This document shows, in pieces, positions 1 to 42,547 of a DNA stretch of 64,000 nucleotides; the first letter of the stretch is position 1; each line of letters opens with the position of its first letter. The notes under the pieces are model-generated. The model did not search any database. It had not been told where the DNA came from and worked only from the letters and a program-made list of their open reading frames with translations. The position numbers and the translations under genes were made by a program. The stretch is from Dipteronia dyeriana. Lineage: Eukaryota; Streptophyta; Magnoliopsida; Sapindales; Sapindaceae. The stretch spans positions 80,504,154 to 80,568,153 of the forward strand of contig CM065298.1 of NCBI GenBank assembly GCA_032871835.1. Reading direction: 5' to 3'.

Positions 1-1170
1 TTTTGATGTTTGCAGATAGATCATAAAAAAAAAGACTACAGATTTTGGTTTTGGCTTGACATTGGGTTAATACATTAGAAGATCATGTTGTATTGATTCG
101 ATATAAAGCTTTATGGTTGCTAGCAAACTAAGTAAAATTTTTATGGGTCGACTTTGCTTTTCATTTTAAAATTATATCATGTATTCCTCTTTCATGGAGG
201 TTACTTTTGGTTCTAAAATTAGATCATGTACTCATTTTAGACTATTTAAAGATTTTTTAAAAGTATTTTTAAAAGATCTTAGAAAATGAATTTATCCACT
301 CTTGTTTGAATGTTTATGCATCTCCCCTGCCTATTTGAGATGGGGTTCAACTTTGGAGTTCCATTCACCCTTGTGTTGTGGGGTTATTTCACTTATAGTG
401 CTTGATATCGAAAGATTTTAATAGGCCTTAATCCGGCCACAAAACAAACAAAAACACTGAAGAAAAAAATAATAAACAATCAAGGAGACTTCTTCTTCCA
501 TGTGTATATTGTGTTGCATGTTTTTTACTAGACACACACACATATAATGTTCTTTTACTAATTATAGATTTCTCAATAATTTGACCTAATTGTAGTCGTA
601 TACACTTATATATCCTAAATAAGGTTAAAAATTAAAAAAAAAATATTGATTTCAAGGGAAATTTTTATCAGTAGAATTTAGTAAGTTATATTTGTAATTG
701 TATATTTTTTTTCTTAAGCTGACCAAGTCTTGGTCAAGTTTTGCCAGACCTCTAAGATAAAACGTCCAATAAAATGTCCAAGATAAATACGACCCTAGGT
801 TCAGGTCAGGTTCTATTAAGACTTATATATTAAATTAACTGATTAAGCGTGGTTTATAAGCTTCTCTTGTGAAGAAGAAAGGTCTCCCCTCCCGTCTCCC
901 GATCACAAAAGTGAAAGCTAAAATTCTTACAATCATGTATAACACAAACCTTCGATATGGGATAAGCTAGTCCATGTAAACACACATATAAAGGGAAAAA
1001 ATTGATGAGAAAATTACATATTTTGCCAACTAACAATAACTCCTACAACAACAAAAGTTATATTACAGAGAGTTAATAAAAAAATGAAATTATAATATAA
1101 ACTTCACTTTCACCATGTAAAGATAAAAAAACAAAACAAAACTCTAATAGATACTTCACTTTCAGCTGAA
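1..1170. other. AT-rich intergenic DNA, no gene seen
   Basis: No open frame here shows a recognisable domain, and no RNA gene could be seen. The longest minus-strand frame (854-1036) is 60 codons of low-complexity hydrophobic sequence and looks like chance. There are short CA and AT runs around 531-548. Confidence 0.6.
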
Positions 1171-1171
1171 T

Positions 1172-2538
1172 AAGATTACTGGAGCCGTAAACAAGGTTAC
1201 CATTGCCGTGAAAATGTTACAAGTCAAAATTTCAAAATGTAAAAGGTGGTTACCAAAGCCGTAAAATGGTTACTGGAGCCGTGAAAAATGTTACAATACC
1301 GTAAAAATGGTTACAACTCAAAATATCACAAATTAAAAAGTGGTTACCAAAACTGTAAAATGGTTACCGTCGCCATGGAAATGGTAACAAGTCAAAATAT
1401 CAAAAATTAAAAAGTGGTTACTAGAGCTTGAAAATGGTTACTGAAGCGGTGGAAATAGTTACCATCGCCGTGGAAATGGTTACAAGTCAAAATATCAAAA
1501 ATTAAAAAGTGATTACTGGAGCCTGGAAATGGTTACGATCGTCGTGGAAATGGTTATCATCGCTGTGGAAATGGTTACAAGTCAAAATATCAAAAATTAA
1601 AAGTGGTTACTAGACCTGTAAAGTGGTTACTGGAAATGGTTATCATCGCTGTGGAAATGGTTACAAGTCAAAATATCAAAAATTAAAAAGTGGTTACTAG
1701 GCCCGTAAAATGGTTACTGGAGTCGTGGAAATGACTACCATCATCGTGAAAATGGTTACAAGTCAAAATTTGAAAAAAAAAATAAAAGGTGGTTACCATA
1801 GCAGTAAAATGGTTACCAAATCCGTGAATGTGGTTACCATTGCCGTGAAAATGATTACAAGTCAAATTTTGAACAAATAAAAGGTGGTTACCATGGCAGT
1901 AAAATGATTACCAAATCCGTGAATATGGTTACCGCTGCTGTAAAAATGGTTACAAATCAAAATTTTAAAAAATGAAAAGTGGTTACCACAACCGTAAAAT
2001 GGTTACCATATCCGTTAAAGTGGTTACCAATACCGTGAAAATGGTTACAAGTCAAAATTTTAAAAATTAAAAAGTGGTTACCAGAGCCGTAAACTGGTTA
2101 CTAGAGCCGTGAAAATGGTTACAATCCAATATTTGGAAAAATATAAAATGATTACCAAAGCGGTAAAATGGTTACCATTGCCATGAAAATGATTACAAGT
2201 CAAATTTTGAACAAATAAAAGATGGTTACCAGGGCAGTAAAATGATTACCAAATCCGTGAATGTGGTTACCACTGCCGTGAAAATGGTTACAAATCAAAA
2301 TTTTAAAAAATAAAAAGTGGTTACCACAGCCGTAAAATGGTTACCATATCCGTTAAAGTGGTTACCAATACCATGAAAATGGTTACAAGTCAAAATTTTA
2401 AAAATTAAAAAGTGATTATTAGAGCTGTAAAATGGTTACTAGAGCCGTGAAAATGGTTACAATCCAATATTTGAAAAAATATAAAGTGGTTACCAAAGCC
2501 GTAAAATGGTTACTGGAGCAATGAAAATGATTACAAGT

Positions 2539-2584
<46 letters not shown>

Positions 2585-3138
2585 GGTTACCAAAGATGTA
2601 CAAATGGTTACTGGAACCGTGAAATAGTTACCATTGCCGTGAAAATGGTTACAAGTAAAAATTTTAAAAAATAAAAAGTGTTTACCACGGCCGTAAAATG
2701 GTTACCATATCCGTGAAAGTGGTTACCAATGCCGTGAAAATGGTTACAAGTCAAAATTTTAAAAATTAAAAAATGGTTACCAGAGCCGTAAAATGGTTAC
2801 TAGAGCCTTAAAAATGGTTATCATCGCAGTGAAAATGGTTACATTCCAATATTTGAAAAAAAAAATAAAAAATAGTTACCAAAGCCTTAAAATGGTTACT
2901 GGTGTCATGAAAGTGGTTATCAATACCGTGAAATTGGTTACAAGTTAAAATTTTAAATATTTAAATTGGTTACCAAAGCTGTAAAATAGTTACTAGATCC
3001 TGGAAAATTGTTACCATCGCCGTGAAAATGGTTACAGGTCAAAATTCCAAAATTGAACAATGGTTACTAAAGCCGTAAAAATTGTTAACACAACCGTGAT
3101 GGTAGTTACCAAAGCTGTGAAAATGGTTACAAGTTAAG
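1172..3138. repeat. Two-kb GGTTAC minisatellite array
   Basis: This is a dense degenerate array built on a roughly 20-bp unit, TGGTTACCAnnGCCGTnAAAA. After every few units there is a spacer reading close to ACAAGTCAAAATTTTAAAAA. Together they form a higher-order repeat. GGTTAC or GATTAC recurs dozens of times over about 2 kb on the + strand. Minus-strand translation gives a pseudo-repetitive peptide (GNHFHG-like), but it is broken by many stops, so I treat the array as non-coding. A pure TA microsatellite interrupts it. Confidence 0.9.
2540..2581. repeat. (TA)n microsatellite
   Basis: An uninterrupted run of about 20 TA dinucleotides lies inside the GGTTAC minisatellite. It is probably length-variable. 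Confidence 0.95.
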
Positions 3139-3347
3139 ATTTCAAAATCATATGAAAATATATAGTTAATTAATTAATCTTAATTAATATAATTTTTAAT
3201 TATAAAACTTATTTTTTTAGGTTTCGTTTTAATTTTTAAAATTTTATAATTATAAATTTAAAGGAGTTGGAAAATTTATTTATTTATTTTTTGGCAACCG
3301 GTTGGAAACTGGCTACCCCATTCCATTTTATATAATTAATTTGTCAT

Positions 3348-22613: not shown

Positions 22614-25015
22614 TTAAACATTGTGTGATCCGCTTCCCTCACCAACACCACTCATACTTGTTAATGGTCTAGACGATCTCGAGTATGTGCATGAATAACT
22701 GTTGTGACCATTACGATGACAAGTTGTACATCTTGATTGACTTACTCCCTCACCAAATGACAGAATACGGTTCTTTTTAGGTCTTCCTGGAAGGCGTCGG
22801 TCGACGGGTGGGAGAACAACTATTGATGCAATATCTTCTGGAACCAACCATTCAGGAGGGTGTCCAACTGGATGAATTTCCCTACTATATGTTGCAGCAA
22901 GAAATGAACTAAAGTAATAAGATGAACAATAATCTATATATGAAAATCGTCGGACCCTAATGCAAGCCAATGCATGTTCACATGGAAGTCCGTCCATGTC
23001 AAATTCTCTACAAGTACATGTTTTTGATGTCAAATCAACAATTCCATCCAAATCTCTATCCTTAACAAGAAATGAGTAATATGAGATCGGGTAAACCGTT
23101 AGATAACTTGCATTTTCGTCCTTCACACATATGCTTACATATGATTTGGTTGTCAATGTAGACTTAAGTTTACCTGCAGATGTCCGACGATCATAGAACC
23201 ACCGTTGGAGAACCCCTCTGATGCAGTCAATAACTCCGGTAATAGGCAATTCCCGACAAACTTTAATTGCATTATTCATGGCCTCTGCAATGTTGGATGA
23301 CGTTAGGTTGTACCTTTTCCTTGGAATGTATGCTTATGCCCACCGTTCAAATCCGACATCCGTGATATACATAGCTACTTCAGAATTTATATTTGCCAAT
23401 TGCTCCATACATCGTGTGAATTGATTTACCCGATAAACTTTAACTGCCTTTCTGAATATGTCTTTTAGTATCTTATTCTTCCCATAGCGTCCAAGCATAT
23501 TCCGTTCTAGATGTACCGCACATGTGCCATGGAATGATTTTGGAAACACTTTTTCCACACCGGTGATAATACTATTTTTCCTATCAGAAACAATAACCAA
23601 ATCATCAACTTCGCCAACGGCACGATGCAACCTAGTTAGAAACCATTCCCAAGCTTCATTTGTCTCTGAATCACCAACACCAAAAGCTAGAGAAAATATT
23701 TGGTCATTTCCATCCATACACACTGCCACAAATAAAACCCCTGCATGAGGGCCTTTCAAAAATGTTGCGTCAATAGCAATTACAAGTTTAATCGAAGACA
23801 GAAATCAGTCTATGCAGGCTTTGAGGCAAAAAAACATATACATGAACCTATTAGTCAAATTTGTGTGGAGGTCTGTAATAGTTCCAGAATTAGTTTGCTC
23901 CAACATGTACAAATATGATGGCAAAATTCGATATGACTCAACCGGTGTTCCTTGAACATCATCTAAGGCAATATGTTTGGATCGGTATGCTTTGTGGTAG
24001 TTATATGAGATGCCAAACTCTTTTTGTATGTCTTGTATAATTTCCTTAGGCTTGTATAAACGATGATCACGAAATTTCTCCTTTATGTGTTCCCCTATAA
24101 CCCGTGCACTTGCTTGTCTCTGATGCGGAAATCGTGCTTCGTTGGAACATGTGTACTCATGGTCAAATCTTCTAATTTGAAAATAATATGAATTAGCAAC
24201 CTTAACTGCACGCAATCGCCATTTGCATTCCTCAACAATGCACCGAACTTGATAACGTGTTGGGTCTAACTTCATCACCTTAATCTGGAACCGGTTGGCA
24301 AAGGCATACCTACCTAATTGTGATTGCAATTGCTGCTTACTTTCAAACAATTCAGCCACTGCAATACACATATCAACAGGTCTAGGAGCAACTTCACCAA
24401 AATTAATAGAATATGATGCAGATGGAGGTGGAACAAGCCTCTGGATATGGGTAAATTGATCATCAGAGCAAAAAGAAACTTGATCAGAAATAGAGTCAAA
24501 CTGTGGTTCTGATACCTCATGCACAGAAACATTTTCAATTTCTGTGGTATCATGGAAACCAAAATGACGATGAGGGGAATTACCGTTGTTGGCAGTTTCT
24601 GTAAATGAAGCAGAATTTTCATCCAGAATCATCCAAATGGGCATTTGTGTTAGGCATATCCGTGGTGTGCTGGAAATCATATTCAGTTGCATCGTGTGGG
24701 GGGTGAGGTGATTCTGGATGAAAATTCTGCTTCGCTTCTGGATGGTCATCATTGATTTGCTCAACACTTATACAAACTAGAGGGTCAACGTGCTCTCGGC
24801 GTAGTAACAATGCAACATCATCATCATCGATAATCTCAATACGCAAACTAGGACGAATGGTTATGCAACAGTCGTAAGAGTAACCCGATAATGATTTCTA
24901 TCAATTCCTATCACGCGGTACACCATATCTAATAGTGTATCATAATTTGCATTCCTTGGAAAATCAAATGCCCGTCATCTCTGACCGTCGTACCAATATA
25001 CACCGTGACCACTTT
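22614..25015 (-). pseudogene. MURA-type Mutator transposase, broken
   Basis: From N to C on the minus strand: an acidic N-terminal region (24620-25015), fragmented by shifts and stops, with RIEIIDDDDVALLL readable. Then a MuDR-type DNA-binding block (about 24080-24360; ESKQQLQSQLGRYAFANRF, RYQVRCIVEECKWRLRAV). Then the MULE catalytic domain (23334-23800) with AIDATFLKG and LVIVSDRKNS supplying two aspartates. Then a SWIM zinc finger (22974-23018, C-x-C-x9-C-x-H), a PGRPKK basic patch and a zinc knuckle CTTCHRNGHNSYSC (22689-22730). From 24767 down to 22614 the frame is continuous except for two stops: TGA at 23805-23807, where family members have Gly-Phe, and TAA at 23334-23336. It is a close but dead copy. 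Confidence 0.9.
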
Positions 25016-25149: not shown

Positions 25150-25490
25150 TTCTTCGGGTCAATGGTGACCCGATCGAGTCAGTTGTGACATGATCGGGTC
25201 ACTCCTGACCCGAAGACCAATTTTAATGGCTTCGGGTTAGGGGCAACCCGAAGCCATTACAATTGGTCTTCGGGTCAATGGTGACCCGATCGGGTCACTC
25301 CTGACCCGAAGACCAATTTTATGGCTTCAGGTTGCCCCCTACCCGAAGCCATAAAATTGGTCTTCGGGTCAGGAGTGACCCGATCGGGTCACCATTGACC
25401 CGAAGACCAATTGTAATGGCTTTCGGGTTGCCCCTAACCCGAAGCCATTAAAATTGGTCTTCGGGTCACTATTGACCTGAAGACCAATTT
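25150..25490. repeat. Compound hairpin array inside the MULE
   Basis: The block is made of two phrases, CTTCGGGTCAnnnnTGACCC and ATGGCTTCGGGTT...CCC, each in both orientations. The whole forms a long inverted repeat centred at about 25336. Arms 25201-25320 and 25353-25473 are near-perfect complements with one extra T in the right arm. Each arm holds smaller palindromes such as CTTCGGGT...ACCCGAAG and GACCCGATCGGGTC. It is clearly richer in GC than its surroundings and has no open frame. Confidence 0.9.
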
Positions 25491-28848: not shown

Positions 28849-31088
28849 CTATAATGTGATATCCTCACACAAAATAAAACCTATATAAGTAGTGTGCTCA
28901 TGAAAGACCTTGAGTGGTAATCTTTTTATAAGCGGATCCGTTATCATGGAGTTTGTTCCAATGTGCTCTATGGATATATGTCTACTCCACACTATTTCCT
29001 TCACAACTAGGAACTTGATGTCAATATGCATTGACCTAGATGAGCTCTTATCGTTGTTAGAATATAGCATTGTTGACTTATTATTAGGGGTGGGCAAAAA
29101 ACCAATGAACCGAACCGAACCGAACCGAACCAGTGGATCAAACTGGTCCAATTGGTTTTTTACTGGTTTTGATTGGGTGATCGGTTCGGTTCGGTTCTAA
29201 TTTAAAAAAAAAACCGGTTGGATCGGTTTTTGTCCGGTTTAGTTTCAAAAATCGGATAACCGAACCGGTACCCGACTATAAATTACAAAAAAAACTAATT
29301 CTAACTTCCATTCTTCACTCTTCAATTATTAGGTATATTTTATTGGATTTTAAAATGTAATTTGAGTTTGTTTGGTATTGACTATTGTATTAGCTATCAA
29401 CAAAAAATTTGGCAGACATGTATTTTGAAATATGTTTACTATTTTGTATTGGATTTTATAGTTTTTTAATATGTTTTTATTGTGATGTAAATAAATTTGG
29501 CACAATAGATTCAAAAAAATGAAATAAATATGTAATAAATGAAATTTAGAATTTTGGCTCATCAGGTCCAAAACCAAAAAAACCGAACCGAACCGAACAG
29601 GTCTAATTCGGTTGGTAAATGTCAATTTGATTGGATCGGTTCACTTTTTTAAAAATCGGATTTTATCGGTTTTTATCGGTTCTATGAAAAACCGAACCGG
29701 TCCAATCAACGCCCACCCCTACTTATTAGCACAATATAGTCTGAGTGGTCTTTCAACACCCTCAAGAATGCGTAACCAAGTGACAAAATTCTGCAGCCAT
29801 ATTTCATGGTTGGATACCTCATAGCATGCTACAAACTCTACGGCTATGGTGGGAGAAGTTATGAGTGCCTGTTTGACACTTCTCTAAGAAATAGCTCCAC
29901 CAGCCAGCAAGTATATGTAGCCTGATGTGGATCTCTTACTGTCTTGGCATCGAACATAATCAAAGTCGGAATACTCTATGATCTCAAACTAATCCGATCT
30001 CCTATATGTGAGCATGTAATCTTTTGTTCTCTTCAAATACCTTATAACTCGATTGGTTGTTTTCCAATGATCCGTCCCAGGGTTACTTAAATATCTGCCT
30101 AACATACCAATAATGTATGCAATATTCGAACGCGTACACACCTGAGCATACATTAAACTCCTTACAATTGATGCATATGGAATCTTCTGCATTTCCTTAA
30201 CTTCTAGGTTACTATTAGGGCACTAATTGAGACTGAACTTGTCTCCCTTAGCGATAGGGATGTCACCTGGTTTGCTGTCCTGCATGCCAAACCTTTTAAG
30301 CACTGTATCAATATAACTCCTTTATGATAATCCAAGAATACCCCGAGAGCGATCTCATTATATCTGGATCCCTAATACCAAGGAGGTGTCACCAAGATCT
30401 TTCATCTCAAAATTCTTTGATAGAAATCTCTTGGTTTCGTGTAACATGCTATATCATTTGTGGCAAGCAGTATGTCCACGACATATAAAACCAGTAATAT
30501 GTGCTTACTCCCACTGAATTTGTGATACACACAATTATCAATAGCATTTATCTCAAAACCAAACGAGATAATAACTTAATGAAACTTATGGTACCACTAA
30601 CGGAAAGGTTGCTTGAGTCCATAGATGGATTTTATCAATTTGCAAACCATATTCTTTGGGTCTCTCAACTCAAAGTTTTCTGGTTGCACTATATAAATTG
30701 TTTCATCAATGTCACAATTGAGAAACGTCGTCTTAACATCCATTTGATGAAACTCAAGGTTAAAATGTCCAACAAATGCCATGATCGTTATAAAAGAGTC
30801 TTTCTTTGAAACTAGAGAGAAAGTCTCTTTAAAGTCAATCCCTTTATTTTGGGTAAAGCTTTTAGTTACAATACAAGCCTTATACCTCTCCACATTACCT
30901 TTCAAATCCTTTTTGGTTTTAAATATCCATTTACAACCAATGGGCTTCGCATCTTCTGGTAATGGGACAAGTTCCCAAACCTTATTGTTTTGCATAGGCT
31001 TGTACTCCTCATTCATGTCAGCAATCCACTTTTGAGAGTTGGAACCCTGCATGGCTTGATGGAAGTTGATTGGATCATTTTCCATCAT
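28849..31088 (-). pseudogene. Copia element 1 reverse transcriptase/RNase H, broken
   Basis: Reading on the minus strand from 31088: NFHQAMQGSNSQKWIADMNE, then VWELVPLPEDAKPIGCKWIF, MDVKTTFLN and KSIYGLKQ. The catalytic motif near 30465-30494 reads YVVD instead of YVDD, so one catalytic aspartate is lost. PYASIVRSLMYAQVCTRSN (29989-30192) belongs to the connection region. The RNase H end (28849-29080) reads IEHIGTNSMITDPLIKRLP. A 637-bp hAT-like insertion splits the RNase H part. Stops and shifts occur throughout. Confidence 0.85.
29084..29720. mobile_element. Non-autonomous hAT-like element (637 bp)
   Basis: The ends AGGGGTGGGC and GCCCACCCCT are inverted, and an exact 8-bp target duplication ACTTATTA flanks the insert (29076-29083 and 29721-29728). 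An 8-bp duplication and this terminus fit the hAT superfamily. Both subterminal regions are packed with AACCGAACCGAACC/GGTTCGGTTCGG motifs, likely transposase-binding repeats. The centre is AT-rich and codes for nothing. It sits inside the RNase H region of Copia element 1, so it arrived later. Confidence 0.88.
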
Positions 31089-31435
31089 TCCAATGTCTTC
31101 CTCATGTTTTTTAAGAAATACGTAAAAATCGTTTAGAATAACATTTCTTCTTGAAATTCCCTAGAAAGTGTGTATATATAACCTAGAGGGGGGGTGAATA
31201 GGTTTTAATTCGATAGATTACCATATTTTGCGAATTAATCAATATTAATAATTCTACCCCATTCTACTTAAATGCTCAATTAAATGACAACAAACATAAA
31301 ACAATAACAACACGGAAAATATACGTGGAAACCCTCCAAATGGGAAAAACCACGGGCTATTTAGAGCGTCACCCTCGATCCTCAAAATCCACTATTTAGT
31401 AAAAGTTTACAACATAGGTTGACCTCCTGTCTAAT

Positions 31436-32973
31436 TGAAATTCCTTAGAAAGTGTGTATCTATAACCTAGAGAAGGGGGGGGGGGGGGGGGCGCGAGGGC
31501 GGTGAATAAGTTTTAATTCGATAGGTTACCAATTTTACGAATTAATCAATATTAACAATTCTACCACATTCTACTTAAATGCTCAATTAAATGACAACAA
31601 ACATAAAACAATAACAACATGAAAAATATACGTGGAAACCATCCAAATGGGAAAAACCACGGGCTATTTAGAGCGCCACCCTCGATCCTCAAAATCCACT
31701 ATTGAGTAAAAGTTTACAACTTGGGTTGACCTCCCGTCTAACCCTCTAATTACTAACCCTTTCACTCTACCCAACGGGCCTTAATAACGATTTTGGATCA
31801 CTAGCCTTGTGCACTAACCACTTAGCCACAAGATAAAACAACAATGATGGCAACCTAAGTGAATATGCAAGAATATTCAATATACAAGAATGTTAGGTCA
31901 ATACATTCATGCTTATCTAGGATTAATAATGACAATTAAATCAAATCCTAGATATCAATGTTCTAAATGCAAAGGCAAGAAGAATTAGCTAGAAGGGAAA
32001 AATCGTCATAAATGCTAGCTATCACCAATTAATGCATCTCAACCGTCAATCAACACACAAGCATATCATAAAAACTACTAAACAACCAAGCAAGCAATTA
32101 ATATGCAATAAAGACTAAAACCCTAGGTATACATGTCTTAGTAATGAAACATAGAGATTAGAACATATAGAGAATACCTAGTCATGAACAAACAAGAAAC
32201 CCATGCTTGAAAGATGCTTGATGCTTTGGATTTTAAGGATGGTTGAGTAAAAATGCCTTTTTGAAGCTTCTCTCTCTAAGGACCTTATCTCACTCTTAAA
32301 ATTAGGTTTGAAAGCTCACAAAACGAATTGGGAAGAAGATGATGTATATATATGAAACTTAAGGTGAAACTGCATCATTTTTGGCAAAACGCAACCAAAA
32401 TACGTCAAGATCGCTGGCTGTATCGTGGTCCAGGTAAGTGTCCAGATCGCGGCATAGAAAGCGGTGTATTGTCTGGACAACGCCGCTCTGAAAGTCGGTG
32501 TACAAGCAGTGTGCACAGACCGCGGTCTGAACAGCGTGCCTCCTCTGTGAAACTCCGCTTGGGAGACTGTGGCGTAGGCAACAATCACAGACCGCGGTAG
32601 ACACCGCGCGTATCCTCTGCCAAACACTCTTGTGCAGGCCGCGGCGGGGGTACTGCACAGACCGCGGTCTAGACCGTGGCATAGAGGAAAAAGAACCCTC
32701 TCTTTAAGGCACAATCATACATTCAACACTCAAATTAAAAATAAGACACACAAGGCACACAAAATGGCAAATAAGCATGCAAGCAAGATGATTAAAATAA
32801 AATGCATGAGTGTGAGTGTGTGCACTAAATCTCTTCAATGAAGTTAAGCAAGTGATTTTACCTTTGATGCTTGAGCTTGGTTACAAACAATGAAGCCCTA
32901 AACTACCCTTACATATTGATCCCAAAATGTGGTTGTCAACAAAATAAGCCAATAAAAAACCGAGGAACTTACA
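31436..32973 (-). mobile_element. Inner sibling solo LTR inserted in the outer LTR
   Basis: This 1,538-bp unit starts TGTAAGTTCCTCGG at 32973 and ends GGAATTTCA at 31436 (minus strand). It is homologous to the outer LTR on both sides of the core. Flanking bases on the minus strand are GTTAG before and ATTAG after, a 5-bp target duplication with one change. No internal region remains, so it is a solo LTR. Its GC-rich core (about 32403-32690) is built on AGACCGCGGTCT-like phrases and does not resemble the core of the outer LTR. A (G)17 run lies near its end (31476-31492). Confidence 0.75.
32403..32690 (-). repeat. GC-rich U3 core of the inner LTR
   Basis: Four imperfect copies of a palindromic GACCGCGGTC-like phrase lie in about 290 bp, far richer in GC than the LTR around it. 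On the minus strand it ends about 50 bp upstream of a TATATATA box (32345-32353). The frames across it have no known domain. Confidence 0.75.
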
Positions 32974-33654
32974 CTAACCCTCCAGTTACTAACCATTTCA
33001 CTCTACCTAACGGGTCTTAATAACAATTTTGGATCACTAGCCTTGTGCACTAACCACTTAGCCATAAGCTAAAACAACAATGAAGAGATAATGGAAACCT
33101 AAGTGAATATGCAAGAATATTCAATATGCAAAAAATGCTAAGTCAATACATTCATGCTTATCTAGGATTAATAATGACAATTAAAGCAAATCCTAGATAT
33201 CAATGTTCTAAATGCAAAGGCAAGAAGAATTAGCTAGAAGGGCAAAATCGTCCTAAATGCCAGCTATCACAAATTAATGCATCTCAACCAACAATCAATA
33301 CACAAGCATGTCATAAAAGCAATTAAACATTCAAACAAGCATTTAATATGCAATAAAGATTAAAACCCTAGGCATACATGTCTTCGTAATGAAAAACATA
33401 AAGCTTAGAACATGTAGAGAATACCTAGTCATGCACACATAAGAAACCCATGCTTGGAAGATGCTTGATGATTTGGATATTAAGTATGGTTGAGTAAAAA
33501 TGCCTTCTTGGAGCTTCTCTCTCTAAAGAACTTTGTCACTCTCTAAAAAATAGGTTGGGAAGCTCTAAAAATGAATTGAGAAGAAGATGATATATTTATA
33601 TGAAGCCCAAAGTGAAGCTACATCGTTTTGGCAAAAACAGGCCAAAAGACGCGA

Positions 33655-33895
33655 TGTGTGCTGGTGCTTGTGCGCTGGTCGAGTAACGCACGACCAACGA
33701 TAACCCATTGGACAAGTTGCGCTAATGAGGTGCGCATGGCGACCAACGCACCACCAGCGACAAACCACTGGTATGTTTGTGCTGGTGTTGGCGCGCATGA
33801 CGACCAACGCACCACCAGCGCCACACCACTAGAAAGCTGCGCTGGTGTTGGCACTGGTGAGGGCGCTGCTCAAGTGGCGCCCAGCTCACCACCTT
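33655..33895 (-). repeat. GC-rich U3 core of the outer LTR
   Basis: About three imperfect copies of a roughly 64-bp unit contain CGACCAACGCACCACCAGCG and GCTGGTGTTGG phrases. A (CA)n run follows at 33895-33914. It occupies the same place in the LTR as the core at 32403-32690 but shares no motif with it. Confidence 0.75.
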
Positions 33896-34244
33896 CACAC
33901 ACACACACACACACAATACATGCAAGAGAAATGAGGTGAAGGGAATGCATCCTAATGCCTAACATGACATGACATTTTAATCATAAGAAGCAATCAATTC
34001 AACCAAGCAAGAGATAATAACATTAGGCACATAATCAAGACAATAAGCACAAATGCAAAGTGATCAAAACATGCATGAGAGTGAGTGTATGCTCTAAACC
34101 TCTTCAAAGAAGATAAGCAAGTAGTTTTACCTTTGATGCTTGAGAAAAAGGCTTGAGCAATGAAGACCTAAACTACCCTTACATATTGATCCCAAAATAT
34201 GGTTTGTCAACGAAATAAGCCAATCAAAAACTGAGAAACTTACA

Positions 34245-34620
34245 ATCTCCCCATTTGGCTATTTCGTGACAAAACCACTCACTCACAATGTATCCTCACA
34301 ACAAATAACAAGAAACAACAAGAGGTCAACAAAAAGAAACATTCTACATTACAAGAGATGCCTAAAGGTAAATCTTCAAATCTTTCATCACTTGTAGAAT
34401 GATCATCCCTACAAAAACAGAGAACTACACTTCTCAAGACAAGTGTATGAGAGGGATCAAGATAAATAGCATGAAATAGAAACAAGTAACATGCAATCAA
34501 CAATGCACAAAGCAAATGCTCCTCCTGGGTCAATCTCCCCTTAAAACATGCCAATATCAACTCCCCCTAAATCTAACACTACTCCCCTCTTTTTGTCACA
34601 AGATAGGCAAATGGGTATTC
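34245..34620 (-). other. Polypurine-tract-rich 3' internal region of the SIRE-like element
   Basis: On the minus strand, several purine blocks precede the LTR: GGGGAATACCC, AGAGGGGAGTAG, TTAGGGGGAGTTG, TTAAGGGGAGATTG and finally AAATGGGGAGAT at the LTR boundary. Repeated polypurine tracts are described for SIRE-type elements. The 93-codon frame at 34279-34560 has no recognisable domain. Confidence 0.6.
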
Positions 34621-35600: not shown

Positions 35601-35865
35601 CACAATGAGAGAAGAATATATACAAAAGCAATGTGAATGTTTTTTTTCTTCACATAATCAGATACTACTATGTGTATATACATTATTACATTAAACTCGT
35701 TTAGATTCAGAAGAAGCAATCTTAGAAATGGAAAAAATGAAGTAAATCCAACAAGAACATTACATACTTGTGTTGTGTAAAAATTCATAAAAGTTATATA
35801 AACAAAAAATTGAAACCCGACTACGATTAATGCCATCAAACTTGTAGTGCCCCATAAATCCAATA

Positions 35866-35943
35866 CTAAAACTTCTTCTGATCCAATCCACCATCGCCTT
35901 TTTGCATCATTGCCACAAATTTACTGTAATCTATTAGACTGTC
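35866..35943 (-). pseudogene. Last exon of a calcium-dependent protein kinase (EF-hand 4 end)
   Basis: On the minus strand, a strong acceptor TTTTGGTTTTCAG (35944-35956) precedes a 78-bp exon. It encodes DSLIDYSKFVAMMQKGDGG and a short tail ending in a TAG stop. This is the exit part of the fourth EF hand and the C-terminal tail of plant CDPKs, where an intron commonly precedes the IDYxEFVAMM block. The usual glutamate of the EF loop (position 12) is lysine here (YSKF), which would weaken calcium binding. I found no kinase domain or other EF hand in the window. Copia element 2 is inserted 83 bp upstream of the exon. It is therefore a gene fragment, possibly one carried by a transposon, or the ruined end of a gene. 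Confidence 0.7.
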
Positions 35944-36030
35944 CTGAAAACCAAAATCAAATACAATTCTAAATTAGTGCACTGTCAAATTGTTTCAAAC
36001 AAACTTTTCCTACAACTTCAAAGGTTTGAT

Positions 36031-36568
36031 TGTTAGGATTTCGATTAACACAAAACTATAACATGCTTAGGCATAAAATTAATCTGAATGTTTAACCTAA
36101 ACATATTTTCATACATACTTAATCAAACCCTAAACAATATAACATAACCCATATCAATTCTAGAAAAAATACGTAAATCTAGAAAGCGGAAGCGTATCTG
36201 AATCCATTGTTGAAGATATGTGAACCGGTTGTGATCTTCCAAATTATCACGACCTTTATGAACCCTACTGTGTTCTATTTGCTCTGTTGATGGGATATAG
36301 AGAAAACTAAAGTATCGTGTAATTTGAGGACCATAACCCTAAATATATATAATAATCAAATTATTATATGTTGGCTATTTCTAATTCGGCCCCTCAACAA
36401 ATTAGAAATAGCACTCTGATATCTACACATTAGTTCCATGACAATTATACCCTTAAGCCTTAATTCTTTAAATCTTAATTAGATCACTTTAATTTAGGCT
36501 TAACCAAAAGATAGCACAACACATTTAATATTCACATGTGTGGCCCCATATGATGGAATTTTCCAACA
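36031..36568 (-). repeat. 3' LTR of Copia element 2
   Basis: It runs from TGTTAGGATTTCG to TTTTCCAACA on the + strand, 538 bp. It pairs with 42010-42547. Confidence 0.95.
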
Positions 36569-37001
36569 ATCTCCCATTGGGCCACATATGTAACTTTACA
36601 AATGTGTATGACTTTATGAGCTCCAAAATTTTGCTATCACAATTTTAGGGTATATCCGAACAATCTCGTCCATTGATTATGCCAACATAGGATTAAAGTG
36701 GCTTTTGTCACATTTAGCGTGACTAAACCCATCAATGGTCACGTATACCAACATAACCAAATGACATAGATCAATCATGGATGCGTAGCGTGGAAATTAC
36801 ATGCAATGTGATCTATACATGTCTATTCCAACTGGTCCTACTTTATTCCTTAGTAAGATCAAAACTTAACACAATGTAACAGAGTGTAATTAACAGAATA
36901 CTTTATTTCTGATCAGAAAAATATCCAAATACATAAATGAATAAAAATATATCCAAAATAAAAATATAGAGCAATACAATACAAAATTATACAAACTCCC
37001 A

Positions 37002-38821
37002 CTATAATGTGATATCCTCACATAAAATAACACCCATATGAGCAGTGTGCTTATGAAATACCTTGAGTGGTAATCCTTTTGCAAGCGGATCCGCTATCAT
37101 GGAGTTTGTCCCAATGTGCTCTATGGATATATGTTCACTCTGAACTCTTTCCTTCACAACTAGGAACCTAGTGTCAATATGCTTTGACCTAGATGAGTTC
37201 CTGTTGTTATTAGAATATATCACTGTTGACTTATTGCCATAATATAGTTTGAGTGATCTTTCAACACCCTCAAGAATGCACAGCCCAGTGACAAAATTCC
37301 ACAACCATATTTCATGGTTGAATGCCTCATAACATGATACAAACTCTGTTGCCATGGTGGAAGAAGCTATGAGTGTCTATTTGGCACTCCTCCAAGATAT
37401 AGCTTCACCAGCCAACAAGTATTTGTAGCCTGATGTGGATCTCCTACTGTCTTGGCATCCAGCATAATCAGAGTCGGAATACTTTATGATCTCAAACTGA
37501 TCTGATCTCCTATATGTGAGCATGTAATATTTTTTTCTCTTCAAATACTTTATAACCTGATTGGCTGCTTTCCAATGATCCATCATAGAGTTACTTAAAT
37601 ATCTGCTTAACATACCAACAATGTACGCAATATCCAGACACGTACATACATGAGCATACATTAGGCTCCTTACAGCTGATGCATAGGAAATCTTATGTAT
37701 TTCCTTAACTTCGAGGTTACTTTTAGGATACTGATTGAGATTGAACTTGCCTCCCTTAGCGACAGGGGTGTCACCTGGTTTGCTGTCCTGCATGCCAAAC
37801 CTTTTGAGCACTGTATCGATATAGCTCCTTTGTGATAATCCAAGAATACCCCAAGAGCAATCTCGTTGTATTTGGATCCCTAATACAAAGGAGACGTCAC
37901 CAATATCTTTTATCTCAAAATTATTTGATAGAAATCTCTTGGTTTCATGCAACATGCCTATATCGTTTGTGGCAAGCAGTATGTCATCGATATATAAAAC
38001 CAGGAATATGTGCTTACTCCCACTGAATTTGTGATACACACAATTATCAACAACGTTTATCTCAAAACCAAATGAGATAATCACTTGATGAAACTTATGG
38101 TACCACTAACGGGAAGCTTGCTTGAGTCCATAAATGGATTCTGTCAATTTGCAAACCATATTCTTTGGGTCTCCCGACTCAAAGTTTTCTGGTTGCACCA
38201 TATAAATTGTTTCGTCAATGTTACCATTGAGAAACGCCGTCTTGACATCCATCTGATGAAGCTCAAGGTCAAAATATGCAACAAATGTCATGATTGTCCT
38301 AAAAGAGTCTTTCGTTGAAAACTGAAGAGAAAGTCTCTTTATAGTCAATCTCTTTCTTTTGGGTAAAGCCTTGAGTTACAAGACGAGCTTTATACCTCTC
38401 CATATTACCTTTCGAATCCCTTTGGTTTTAAATATCCATTCACAACCAATAGGCTTCGCACCTTTTGGTGATGGGACAAGTACCCAAACCTTATTGTCTT
38501 GCATAGACTTATACTCCTCATTCATGGCATCAATCCACTTTTGAGAGTTGGAACCCTGCATGGCTTGATGGAAATTAATTGGATCATTTTCCATCATTCC
38601 AATGTTTTCCTCATGATCCTGGAGAAATACGTAAAAAAAAAACCGTCTGGAATAACATTTCTCCTTTCTCTAGTGGATCGCCTTAATGACATTGGTTCTT
38701 GAGGTTGTTGAGTTTGTTCCTCAGGAACAATTACCACATCTTGAATGGGGGGTTGTTCAACATTGTCTGGTTGAGGATCCAAATTCGATTCTTGATCAAT
38801 GACAGGTATAGAAGCCTGCAC
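37002..38821 (-). pseudogene. Copia element 2 reverse transcriptase and RNase H
   Basis: On the minus strand from 38821: SLRRSTRERRNVIPDGF, then NFHQAMQGSNSQKWIDAMNE, MDVKTAFLNGNIDETIYMVQ and ESIYGLKQASR. Then a stop, then a long frame (37377-38084, 235 codons) with the intact catalytic YIDDILLA, KDIGDVSFVLGIQIQRD and the RNase H start (DSDYAGCQDSRRSTSGY). The RNase H end (37002-37355) carries VIYSNNNRNSSRSKHIDTRF and IEHIGTNSMIADPLAKGLP. It is much better preserved than in element 1, but at least three breaks (38376-38348, 38105-38085 and 37376-37356) remain. Confidence 0.88.
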
Positions 38822-39150
38822 ATTGTCAAAAACGATAGTAGGAATCGAAACCGATTATTCCTCAAAGACAATGTCTCTAACCTTATTTCTCCCCCCAAAC
38901 TCAACATCCCCAAAAATGTTACAGTTTCCGTTTCAAATATTGACCAAAGTGTGGGATCATAAAACTTATAGCCCTTTGATCGCTCAGAGTAGCCAATGAA
39001 GTAGTTACTCACAGTTTTGGAGTCCAATTTCTTTTCATGTGGACTGTAAGGCCTTGCCTCAGCTGGACATCCCCAAATGTGAAAATGCTTTAGATTAGGC
39101 TTTTATGCTTGTCCAAAGCTCATAAGGTGTTTAACAGCTTCATTATTCTT
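38822..39150 (-). pseudogene. Integrase C-terminal fragment fused behind gag
   Basis: HIWGCPAEARPYSPHEKKLD and NYFIGYSERSKGYKFYDPT are the usual end of the Copia integrase region. Upstream the sequence passes directly into gag at about 39150. Protease, the zinc-binding domain and the catalytic core of integrase have been deleted. Confidence 0.8.
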
Positions 39151-39826
39151 CCTCTATTTGCCCTTATCCTTATAGGTGCTAGCCAAATGAGCACTTTCGG
39201 TCATGTCTCGCTTTAGTCTCTCTTCCTCTTGCATACAGTAAGAAATTAGCTCATTAAGAGTCAATTTCTCCTTTTGACAGTTGTAACTGACCTTAAACTG
39301 GTTGTATTATGCAGGAAGTGATATTAATACCAAATGCACGAGCAAGTCGTCAGGCAGCTCGAGCTTTAGTGCCTTAAGCTTAGAAGAAATATGAGACATT
39401 TCCATAATGTACTCCCTAATGTTCCCTTTGCCTTTGTACTTCATAGAAATCAAGCTTTGCAAATGCGTGCTTGTTTCTACCTTATCGTTTTTAACAAAAC
39501 GCTTTTCAATTTATACTAGGAACTCCTTGGCTTTGGTTATCTTTTCAGATACCGCACCCCTAAATGCCGCGCTTGATGATCATAAGACTCATGCTATTTG
39601 AACAATCTCACTTCTCAAAGTTCTTCCTATTATCAGGAGAACTTGCATCCGTAAGAGAAGCGGGTTGCTCAACCTGAAATGCAAGGTCCAGATCCATGCA
39701 GCCGAGAACAATGAGTATGTTTTCCTTCCAAAACCTTAAAGTTGATCCCATGAAGCACGAGTATATAGTTGGTATTAGCAGATATAGTACAACATTAGCT
39801 TGAAAGAGAACAAAACAAACACACAA
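39150..39826 (-). pseudogene. Copia element 2 gag, broken
   Basis: Reading on the minus strand: ENILIVLGCMDLDLAFQVEQ, ASLTDASSPDNRK, then (after stops) EKRFVKNDKVETSTHLQSLI, MKYKGKGNIREYIMEMSHIS and LKALKLELPDDLLVHLVLIS. Then YNQFKVSYNCQKEKLTLNEL and CMQEEERLKRDMTESAHLAS. This is the UBN2 gag domain typical of Copia. At least four stops interrupt it. No zinc knuckle remains, because the deletion junction lies just after the gag core. Confidence 0.82.
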
Positions 39827-39869
39827 ACATGCTCACATTAATAACCAAATACAATAATCAACAAATTCA

Positions 39870-40860
39870 AATAATGGTAAATCTCATCTCAAGATACCTA
39901 GCACAACATTAATATCAAGTCTTTGGACAGTAATATTAATTGTAAGTGGTACTCTTGTTGTAGCGATCAAACATTGACAATAATTAATGTCAAATAATAA
40001 ATTTATCTTTGGATCGACTTATTATTCACATGTCCAACCTTATAATCGTCACATATTTATCACCACAGGTGTGTGTGTAATTCGGCCAAGTATTAACCTT
40101 CCTTTGGGCCGACTAATACTCGCATGAATTTACATGCACACAAACATCCAACATCCCTCATGAATAATCTACACAAGAAAGGTCACTTTGGTGACATCTT
40201 GCTTCAATTAGCCCATTTAGAATGATAGATCAATTTATTTAACCATAAAAGATATACCAAATAATGGCCGGTCCCATCTTAAGATACCCAGTACAACATT
40301 AATATCAAGTCTTTAGACAATAATATTAATTGTAAGTGGTATTCTTGTTGTAGTGATCAAACATTGACAATAATTTATGTTAAATAATAAATCTATCTTT
40401 GGATCGACTTATTATTCACATGTAAAACCTTATAATCATCACATGTTTATCACCACAAATGTGTGTATAATTCGGCCAAGTATTAACCTTCCTTTGGGCC
40501 GGCTAATACCCGCATGATATACACACACGTGGTACTCCTTTAGTAGTGATCAAACATTGATAATAATTTATGTTAAATAATAAATCTATCTTTTGATCGA
40601 CTTATTATTCACATGTAAAACCTTATAATCGTCACATGTTTACCACCACAGATGTGTGTACAATTCGGTCAAGTATTAACCTTCCTTTGGGCCGGTAAAT
40701 ACCCATATGAATTTACACACACATGAATATCCAACATCCCTCATGAACAATCTATATAAGAGAGGTCACTTTGGTGACATCTTGTTTCAATTAGCCCATT
40801 TAGAATGATGGATTACTTTATTTAACCATAAAAAGGTATATTACCAAATATTTGAATTTA
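39870..40860 (-). repeat. Long tandem repeats in the leader of Copia element 2
   Basis: A block containing AAACATTGACAATAATT, GATCGACTTATTATTCACATG and CCTTCCTTTGGGCCG occurs three times (near 39967, 40368 and 40548). The first two units are about 390 bp apart. The third joins after a shorter second unit (about 275 bp). A second phrase, CATCCCTCATGAA...GGTCACTTTGGTGACATC, closes units one and three. Confidence 0.88.
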
Positions 40861-40889
40861 AGTTGATCTTTATAATAAAATGAAAATAA

Positions 40890-41200
40890 ATAAAAAAATT
40901 ATTTCATTTTATCAAAATTACAAAAATGTCCCTTATTTTTTAAAATTATAGAAAGGTCCCTTAAGTTTTTATAATTAAAATTTGGCACAAAACTTTTGAA
41001 AATTACAAATTGACCCCGTAACGTTTCAATAATTAAAATTTGGCCCCAAACTTTTGCAAATTACAAAGTGACCCCGTAAATTTTTGATAATTATAAATCT
41101 TCTCAAAACGTTTTCTTAATTGCAAATAGATCCTGTAAGTTTTGGAAATTATAAATTGACCCCGAACTTTATCGAAATCACACAATGGCCCAAATAATTT
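40890..41200 (-). repeat. Degenerate short tandem repeats in the leader
   Basis: Phrases like AATTACAAANTGACCCCGTAA and AATTAAAATTTGGCCCC alternate about every 40-60 bp. They carry no open frame. Confidence 0.65.
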
Positions 41201-41259
41201 GTAAAACAGTCCCTCAAGAATTTCGAATTTTCAAAAAAAGGGCCTAACACAAAAAACAA

Positions 41260-41994
41260 CTGAAAACCTGATTCTTTGCCGTTAACCGCTCTAAAGGCCA
41301 CCACGTCGTCGCCTAAAGGCAACGACGCACAGCGGAGCAACGAACGACGACACACAGACTCAGATCGGCAATCAACGAAGGCCAACACCGATCCAAACCT
41401 GATCGAGCAACCGACGGCTGGAGGAGGTGATGGATCCCCCGATCTGGACCTGCGGCGTGATCGACCCCCGTCCATCTGTATCTTAGCCGTAATCGTACGG
41501 TTTTGATCCCAAAACTCGTCGGAAAATCAGAACTGAATGGTGTTGACCGAGAGCGAGAGAACTGGTTTTGGGCGAGAGAAAATGGGGTTGGCTGGGATAT
41601 GGTGGCATTGATTGAGTTGGATCTGAATCCACAGAGGAAACCTGGTCAGATGATCTGATTCCAAATTCCTTAATCAGAACAAAACGAGATCTGAATATCC
41701 AACTCCAGACCTTCGACCTCATATTCGCATAACTACGATCTGAATCCAACCCCATCTCCATGTTCACCCACCAAGCAAATCCAGAATCCACAAAAACAAA
41801 CATAAACAAAACAAAATATAATCATGGATTTAACATATATATTAGACAATAAATATGTTTCAGAAGCAAAACAAATCCATAATATATTTTTGTTCAATGG
41901 ATCAGACATCAAAACTAATGCAAATGAACAATAAAATTCAAAATTTCATAAAACCTAAAATCTAAATCTCAATTCTCAAGAATCGATTATGGGT
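41260..41994 (-). other. GC-richer 5' leader segment of Copia element 2
   Basis: The part at 41270-41560 is GC-rich compared with the rest. It has overlapping frames on both strands (for example 41149-41475) without a known domain. It lies between the primer-binding site and the leader repeats, so it is leader sequence and not a host gene. Confidence 0.5.
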
Positions 41995-42007
41995 GGCTCT
42001 GATACCA
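41995..42007 (-). other. Primer-binding site of Copia element 2
   Basis: Read on the minus strand it is exactly TGGTATCAGAGCC, complementary to the 3' end of plant initiator tRNA-Met, two bases after the LTR. Confidence 0.9.
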
Positions 42008-42009
42008 CT

Positions 42010-42547
42010 TGTTAGGATTTCGATTAACACAAAACTATAACATGCTTAGGCATAAAATTAATCTGAATGTTTAACCTAAACATATTTTTATACATACTTA
42101 ATCAAACCCTAAACAATATAACATAACCCATATCAATTCTAGAGAAAATACGTAAATCTAGAAAACGGAAGCGTAACTGAATCCATTGCTGAAGATATGT
42201 GAACCGGTTGTGATTTTCTAAATTATCACGACCTTTATGAGCCCTACTGTGTTCTATTTGCTCTGTTGATGGGATATAGAGAAAACTAAAGTATCGTGTA
42301 ATTTGGGGACCATAACCCTAAATATATATAATAATCAAATTATTATATGTTGGCTATTTCTAATTCGGCCCCTCAACAAATTAGAAATAGCACTCTGATA
42401 TCTACACATTAATTCCATGACAATTATACCATTAAGCCTTAATTCTTTAAATCTTAATTAGATCACTTTAATTTAGGCTTAACCAAAAGATAGCACAACA
42501 CATTTAATATTCACATGTGTGGCCCCATATGATGGAATTTTCCAACA
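42010..42547 (-). repeat. 5' LTR of Copia element 2
   Basis: 538 bp, about 98% identical by eye to the LTR at 36031. On the minus strand it is followed by TGGTATCAGAGCC. Confidence 0.95.

What the first reader, a model, noticed from the sequence alone, without database searches (positions are those of the whole stretch)
31152..34244. Two sibling LTRs carry unrelated GC-rich cores at the same place, just upstream of the TATA box
An inner solo LTR (31436-32973, flanks GTTAG/ATTAG) sits in an outer LTR of the same family. Outside the core the two align well on both sides. The cores (32403-32690 and 33655-33895) share no motif: one is built on GACCGCGGTC palindromes, the other on a unit of about 64 bp with CCAACGCACCACCAGCG. 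Both lie about 50 bp upstream of a TATA box read on the minus strand, i.e. in the U3 promoter. It looks as if the enhancer block is exchanged as a cassette between family members. Variable U3 regions are known for Tnt1 subfamilies; complete replacement by different GC-rich minisatellites would be a stronger form.
Basis: partly seen in the sequence, partly recalled or inferred. Interest (0 to 1): 0.75.

Follow-up and report, generated by a model that had tools for sequence, protein, structure and literature searches.

The report
Retrotransposon family with two alternative promoter cores
One family of plant jumping genes occurs in two forms that share nearly all the sequence compared here except the GC-rich block in front of the promoter, which is unrelated in the two forms and looks swapped in as a block rather than changed bit by bit.

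Summary
Inner LTR 31436-32973 and outer LTR 31152-34244 align on both sides (82.6% and 88.1%). Their cores align no better than shuffled sequence and end 49 and 53 bp before TATA. The elements carry Sirevirus marks. GC/CpG-rich palindromic blocks just upstream of TATA are a published Sirevirus feature (PMC2829016).

A core-neutral anchor occurs 164 times in the genome. Of 95 of the 100 listed copies, 67 have the inner core, 27 the outer, 1 neither; none of 97 copies matches both. Farther out the types are hardly distinct: between-type distances resemble within-type ones in U3 1-60, R-U5 beyond about column 240, the linker and the first internal 130 bp. Association with core type weakens with distance, unevenly.

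Best reading: the core was replaced as a block and recombination then loosened it from the rest. One replacement suffices (1-2 tree changes beside the core). Repeated exchange, donor, further core types and enhancer function remain unshown. U3-defined subfamilies are known in Tnt1 and crapaud; this is a new variant of a known kind.

The parts
31152..34244 (-). outer LTR (3' LTR of an apparently truncated Sirevirus-type element), interrupted by the inner LTR
   Evidence: TG..CA ends; linker and PPT directly upstream on the minus strand; self-alignment
31436..32973 (-). inner solo LTR of the same family
   Evidence: outer-LTR sequence on both sides, no internal region
31431..31435 (.). target-site copy CTAAT
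32974..32978 (.). target-site copy CTAAC (4 of 5 bases equal)
32403..32690 (-). inner ('IN') core: GC-rich, palindromes around CCGCGG (CAGACCGCGGTCTG and kin) and one CGGTCTAGACCG
   Evidence: same core type in 67 of 95 anchor-sampled copies
33655..33895 (-). outer ('OUT') core: GC-rich, 60-bp unit with CCAACGCACCACCAGCG, strong predicted hairpins
   Evidence: same core type in 27 of 95 anchor-sampled copies
32341..32354 (-). TATA region of inner LTR, 49 bp after the core
33589..33602 (-). TATA region of outer LTR, 53 bp after the core
32770..32973 (-). inner U3 5' flank aligned with the outer one (82.6%)
34042..34244 (-). outer U3 5' flank aligned with the inner one
31738..32389 (-). inner TATA-R-U5 flank aligned with the outer one (88.1%)
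32974..33636 (-). outer TATA-R-U5 flank aligned with the inner one
34245..34254 (-). terminal polypurine tract ATGGGGAGAT before the LTR TG
34535..34588 (-). three further polypurine tracts (AGGGGAG, AGGGGGAG, AGGGGAG; 5' ends 34588, 34568, 34541)
34200..34277 (-). inverted repeat around the PPT/LTR junction (arms about 34255-34277 and 34200-34223)
   Evidence: arm ends read by eye from the sequence; short matches
31471..31505 (-). C-rich tract near the 3' end of the inner LTR, where Sireviruses have an integrase signal
   Evidence: alignment; outer counterpart about 31181-31193

Best explanation
Both LTRs belong to one large family with Sirevirus (Ty1/copia) marks. Its U3 carries, about 50 bp upstream of TATA, a GC/CpG-rich block rich in inverted repeats, in the place published for the Sirevirus repeated-motif (RM) block. 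In the sampled part of this genome the family exists with two non-homologous versions of that block. Shown here: the versions are discrete, the sequence farther out is one pool, and association with the core weakens away from it. Inferred: the block was replaced once, by recombination with another element's U3; both versions then amplified in overlapping periods; template switching between co-packaged RNAs (at R and in other homologous sequence) reassorted the rest around the two cores. The core probably works as a promoter-proximal regulatory array.
For: 97 unique copies: 67 IN, 29 OUT, 1 without a core, none matching both. Mean distance within IN / within OUT / between: U3 1-60 .085/.082/.087; U3 181-215 .081/.199/.446; core edge .194/.110/.635, falling to .121/.062/.140 at TATA; right columns 301-720 between-type values do not exceed the larger within-type value; linker similar within and between, 31 IN and 11 OUT; first 130 bp of the internal region .090/.074/.083, 24 IN and 11 OUT. 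Minimum changes of core type on trees: 1 and 2 beside the core, 4 (U3 61-160) and 5 (right 61-300) farther out, 14 in right 301-741 (shuffled mean 24.8), 17 in U3 1-60 (22.8); internal 130 bp 8 against 9.5. Four-combination sites with core type: 1 of 11 in U3 163-215, 11 of 13 in right columns 187-741. 17 of 17 credible, determinable same-element LTR pairs share the core type. LTR-pair divergences overlap: OUT .012-.054 (6), IN .019-.071 (11). Both core types fold better than shuffles: mean z -3.61 and -4.53 (14 copies each), left flanks +.38 and +.35; core CpG o/e .88 (65 copies) and .78 (28), flanks .36 and .36. Sirevirus marks.
Against: Copies are old (median LTR-pair divergence 4.2% against 8.3% between all copies) and short stretches resolve trees poorly: the partner LTR is the nearest row in only 8 of 38 cases in right columns 301-520 and 1 of 36 in U3 1-60. 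Part of the decay may be lost signal. Association never quite vanishes: 14 changes in right 301-741 are still below every shuffle (minimum 19), OUT nearest neighbours are of the same type in .66 of cases in columns 521-741 (chance .30) though .15 in 301-520, the linker tree needs 4 changes against 9.75 shuffled (minimum 6), and only 8 of 20 linker sites show four combinations (9 OUT rows). Mean r2 is uneven.66.37.28.00 leftward (the last from 1 site) but .22.38.20.17.12.02.12 rightward, bins of 1-11 sites. Near the core association is nearly complete over some 300 bp, so recombination there is rare. No donor was found; no function data.
Confidence: 0.61

Rival explanations
1. Two old subfamilies whose cores diverged in place by fast repeat turnover until no similarity was left, with the rest kept alike by slower change or gene conversion.
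For: Both cores are repeat-rich blocks of similar size at the same place; near flanks are somewhat differentiated (U3 61-180 and right columns 61-240); cores also vary within type, down to about 75% (OUT) and 72% (IN) identity to the window core.
Against: No intermediate in 97 copies; core similarity at shuffled level; U3 1-60, outer R-U5, linker and internal start show no excess divergence between types, so total loss by gradual change would need an extreme rate difference with a sharp edge within about 60 bp upstream of TATA.
Confidence: 0.15
2. One block replacement shortly before a star-like burst, with no later recombination between the types; the mixing on trees is only lack of signal.
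For: Beside the core 1-2 changes suffice; the partner LTR is often not the nearest row, and some association remains in outer R-U5 and linker.
Against: Right columns 301-741 have more columns than 61-300 yet need 14 changes against 5; 11 of 13 informative transversion sites in right columns 187-741 show all four combinations with core type; half of the distance between copies predates insertion (4.2% against 8.3%).
Confidence: 0.2
3. The core was converted after insertion, LTR by LTR, by ectopic gene conversion in the chromosome.
For: Gene conversion between LTR subfamilies is proposed for crapaud (PMC10787394, passages seen).
Against: Both LTRs of an element share the core type in 17 of 17 credible pairs, as expected if the core is copied in reverse transcription.
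Confidence: 0.04

Closest known systems
Sirevirus LTR repeated motifs (RM), Bousios et al. 2010, PMC2829016
   Same: Palindromic, CpG-island-forming array in the upper half of the LTR, shortly before TATA; RM sequence differs between elements; CGGTCTAGACCG in the inner core is close to the published CGGTCTGACCG and CGGTCGACCG.
   Different: There the compared elements have almost no LTR identity (3.9% on average). Here two unrelated blocks alternate inside one family with LTR flanks mostly about 90% alike; the outer core lacks the CGG-CCG signature and the window's inner core has fewer palindromes than the eight or more copies reported.
crapaud of Podospora, PMC10787394
   Same: Variation mostly limited to U3 before TATA, R-U5 conserved, 14 distinct but connected subfamilies, recombinants reported.
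   Different: Fungal element; no GC-rich inverted-repeat core with shared architecture in the passages seen.
Tnt1 / Retrolyc1 / Retrosol subfamilies, PMC1838419
   Same: Subfamilies of copia elements defined by U3; the authors speak of modular evolution.
   Different: Other lineage; in the passages seen the differences are U3 substitutions and indels, not replacement of a bounded core.
ONSEN recombination, PMC5668417
   Same: Experimental evidence in a plant LTR retrotransposon for the exchange route inferred here: hybrid LTRs, most consistent with template switching in R, one junction in U3.
   Different: Parents are members with similar LTR sequences; no alternative cores in the passages seen.

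Membership tests
Sirevirus (Ty1/copia) | Several polypurine tracts near the 3' LTR, terminal one AGGGGGAG | tested here: met
   Window: terminal ATGGGGAG plus three upstream tracts, one exactly AGGGGGAG. Relative L021: three AGGGGGAG, terminal one included. Terminal AGGGGGAG in 27 of 42 3' copies, variants in 15.
Sirevirus (Ty1/copia) | AT/TG attachment site and inverted repeat around the PPT/3' LTR junction | tested here: met
   AT stands before the LTR in 42 of 42 3' copies (copies were chosen by similarity to the window linker). Inverted repeat seen in the window and L021.
Sirevirus (Ty1/copia) | CA/ATTGG TATCAGAGC at the 5' LTR/PBS junction | tested here: met
   16 of 37 5' copies have ATTGGTATCAGAGC exactly, the other 21 are variants (copies chosen by similarity to L022).
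Sirevirus (Ty1/copia) | C-rich integrase signal near the LTR 3' end | tested here: met
   Both window LTRs and L022, by eye; not scored against the published motif.
Sirevirus (Ty1/copia) | TATA box shortly after a CpG-rich LTR block | tested here: met
   49 and 53 bp; core CpG o/e .88 and .78.
Sirevirus (Ty1/copia) | Palindromic RM with CGG-CCG signature in at least eight copies (12 of the 21 elements in the paper have such an RM) | tested here: inconclusive
   Window inner core: one CGGTCTAGACCG and four CCGCGG-centred palindromes; outer core: no CGG-CCG signature. The paper states that elements without RM may carry other CG-rich repeats.
Sirevirus (Ty1/copia) | Reverse transcriptase within the Sirevirus clade | not tested
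   RVT_2 found in relative L021, but no reference set was aligned.
   Several PPTs and at least 540 bp of linker-like sequence before the 3' LTR. Tnt1-clade RT was not tested.

The most novel reading that the evidence does not exclude
The U3 core is an exchangeable regulatory module: a Sirevirus family keeps two unrelated but functionally equivalent inverted-repeat arrays as alternative alleles of its promoter and shuffles them against the rest of the element by recombination, perhaps because a rare core escapes small RNAs aimed at the common one.
Probability: 0.17. Interest if true: 0.8.

Novelty: new variant of a known kind. Interest (0 to 1): 0.55.

Why it matters
It gives a natural promoter-swap series: many copies of one retrotransposon that differ in the core while the sequence farther out is shared. 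Expression, methylation and small-RNA targeting could then be attributed to the core, which would test whether Sirevirus inverted-repeat arrays are enhancers, silencing triggers or both.

Tried and rejected
Rejected: in-place divergence as main account; post-insertion gene conversion; Tnt1 as the nearest relative; a shared motif between cores (no 9-mer shared among those held by at least half of each type; three shared 8-mers). Copy L085 lacks a core because the family sequence breaks off just upstream of TATA.

Limits. Five of the 100 listed anchors were not fetched and 64 of 164 were not listed. The sample requires an exact 21-bp anchor common to both window LTRs, so core types beside other anchors would be missed. 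Two rows (L002, L011) of the 97 were picked by a query containing the outer core; without them and with one LTR per element the divergence pattern is alike. Rows dropped: L085 (no core) from all flank work; L033, L038 and L068 from the left flank for poor starts; L011 and L020 from the internal 130 bp as too short. Of 20 candidate pairs, L074/L075 (26% apart) and L049/L050 (40%) were set aside as doubtful and L085/L086 as undeterminable. The internal region was also compared over about 600 bp in only 12 loci (7 IN, 5 OUT).114/.079/.095, 3 changes against 4.1, too few to weigh. In the window's outer row the last part of the right-flank alignment runs into the inner LTR (my reckoning, under 100 bp). 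PMC4728375 (palindromes and small RNAs in maize Sireviruses) is not held; I know it only as cited in PMC10760457. On re-checking I lowered the main confidence from .68 to .61: the remaining association far from the core and the 8 of 20 linker sites weigh against full reassortment.

Full report
What is in the window. The window is C4:80504154-80568153 of a 914-Mb genome in 78 contigs. On the minus strand the outer LTR runs from 34244 (TG) to 31152 (CA); the inner LTR (32973 to 31436) is inserted in it with a five-base target copy that differs in one base. The two LTRs align at 88.1% over 664 columns from TATA into U5, at 86.7% over the LTR end and at 82.6% over the U3 start. Between these lie two blocks, 32403-32690 and 33655-33895, whose mutual alignment score is no better than that of shuffled sequence. 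They are rich in GC and CpG in an AT-rich LTR, and end 49 and 53 bp before TATA.

What kind of element. Next to the outer LTR stands ATGGGGAGAT, preceded by one arm of an inverted repeat whose other arm is in the LTR; three more polypurine tracts follow within 350 bp. A relative on C2 has AAAGGGGGAGAT before TG, three AGGGGGAG tracts with the terminal one, and a reverse transcriptase of Pfam RVT_2. Of 37 5' copies, 16 carry ATTGGTATCAGAGC exactly and the others variants, and the LTR ends with a C-rich tract. These are the Sirevirus marks of Bousios et al. 2010 (PMC2829016; abstract, Results and the first part of the Discussion read). An RT tree was not made. That paper also describes palindromic repeated motifs that form CpG islands, with TATA on average 37 bp after the island. 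The cores here are in that place. The window's inner core has one CGGTCTAGACCG and four CCGCGG-centred palindromes; the outer has no CGG-CCG signature but a 60-bp unit and strong predicted hairpins.

Two types in the genome sample. A 21-bp anchor downstream of TATA, identical in both window LTRs, has 164 exact copies and none in the reversed control. I examined 95 of the 100 listed: 67 have the inner core, 27 the outer, 1 neither. With two further copies from an outer-type query the set is 97: 67, 29 and 1; no copy has a BLAST match to both cores. An anchor at the U3 start has 390 exact copies, so the sample is only part of the family and other core types may exist.

One family farther out. 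Mean distances within IN, within OUT and between types are .085.082.087 in the first 60 bp of U3.115.135.191 in 61-120.050.083.110 in 121-180; and .081.199.446 in 181-215, where the block begins (66 IN, 27 OUT). On the other side the between-type distance falls from .635 in the core through .465 and .326 to .140 at TATA. In right columns 61-240 it is slightly above both within-type values, from about 241 on it is close to or between them (67 IN, 29 OUT). The 540 bp before the 3' LTR (31 IN, 11 OUT) and the first 130 bp of the internal region (24 IN, 11 OUT) are not clearly differentiated. Gradual divergence of the core alone does not easily give this, so I conclude that a block was replaced.

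Recombination. On trees of separate stretches the minimum number of core-type changes is 1 (right 1-60) and 2 (U3 161-215) beside the core, 4 (U3 61-160) and 5 (right 61-300) farther out, 14 in right 301-741 and 17 in U3 1-60, against shuffled means of 22.8-25.5; right 61-741 as one block needs 7. Whole flanks gave 1 (left 215 bp) and 4 (right). For the internal 130 bp it is 8 against 9.5, for the linker 4 against 9.75. Informative transversion sites that show all four combinations with core type are 1 of 11 in U3 163-215, 0 of 2 and 6 of 9 in the next two bins, 1 of 1 at the U3 start; 3 of 9 and 2 of 4 in right 1-186, 11 of 13 in right 187-741, and 8 of 20 in the linker. Mean r2 falls from .66 to .00 leftward; rightward it is uneven (.22.38.20.17, then .12.02.12), and .07-.12 in the linker. 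Against full mixing: 14 changes is still below every one of 200 shuffles (minimum 19), linker and right 521-741 keep some association, and signal far out is weak, since a copy's own partner LTR is the nearest row in only 8 of 38 cases in right 301-520. Tight association near the core, and 1-2 changes there, mean that a single replacement suffices.

Timing and inheritance. Of 20 candidate LTR pairs, 17 are credible and determinable, and all 17 share one core type. LTR-pair divergence is .012-.054 for six OUT and .019-.071 for eleven IN elements, so the two forms were active in overlapping periods.

How it may work. RNA folding of 14 cores of each type gives mean z of -3.61 and -4.53, against +.38 and +.35 for the left flanks, and core CpG o/e is .88 and .78 against .36. 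For the window's own inner core the z is only -1.44 (17 of 200 shuffles fold as well), for the outer -5.50 (0 of 200). Shared architecture without shared sequence fits a regulatory array in which inverted repeats and CpG matter more than letters. In maize Sireviruses, palindromic regions of strong predicted structure attract an excess of small RNAs (Bousios et al. 2016 as cited in PMC10760457, passages seen). Enhancer or silencing roles are inference here. The likely exchange route is template switching between co-packaged RNAs, supported for ONSEN, mostly in R and once in U3 (PMC5668417, passages seen).

What is known. U3-defined subfamilies with the rest conserved are known in Tnt1 relatives (PMC1838419, passages seen) and in crapaud (PMC10787394, passages seen). 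My searches for Sirevirus with palindromes, U3, tandem repeats or subfamilies, and for U3 recombination in general (listings seen, few papers opened) showed no report of alternative repeated-motif cores inside one Sirevirus family. They cover only the open-licence library. I therefore rate it a new variant of a known kind.

Noticed in passing
window 36031-42547: A copia element of another family with LTRs 36031-36568 and 42009-42547, 98% identical, and target copies TTGAT on both sides.
   Followed up: partly
window 35800-36000: Minus-strand reading DSLIDYSKFVAMMQKGDGGLDQKK resembles the last EF-hand of a calcium-dependent protein kinase; the likeness is recalled, not searched. The copia element at 36031-42547 may sit in this gene.
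   Followed up: partly
window 31151/31152: The outer LTR abuts an RVT_2 reading frame of a different copia element that stops at the junction (30600-31160 minus). No further coding part of either element was recognised to the right in the stop-to-stop readings; a deletion after nested insertion is possible.
   Followed up: no
window 25151-25481: 96-bp tandem unit made of TCGGGTCA..TGACCCGA inverted repeats, another GC-rich palindromic array, not in an LTR recognised here.
   Followed up: no
window 1167-3148: About 2 kb array of degenerate AAAATGGTTACCAAAGCCGTG-like units with higher periods of 74, 95 and 338 bp.
   Followed up: no
window 22617-24767: Minus-strand frames 22617-23333, 23337-23804 and 23808-24767 look like a MULE/MuDR-type transposase (impression from the translation; not searched).
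   Followed up: no
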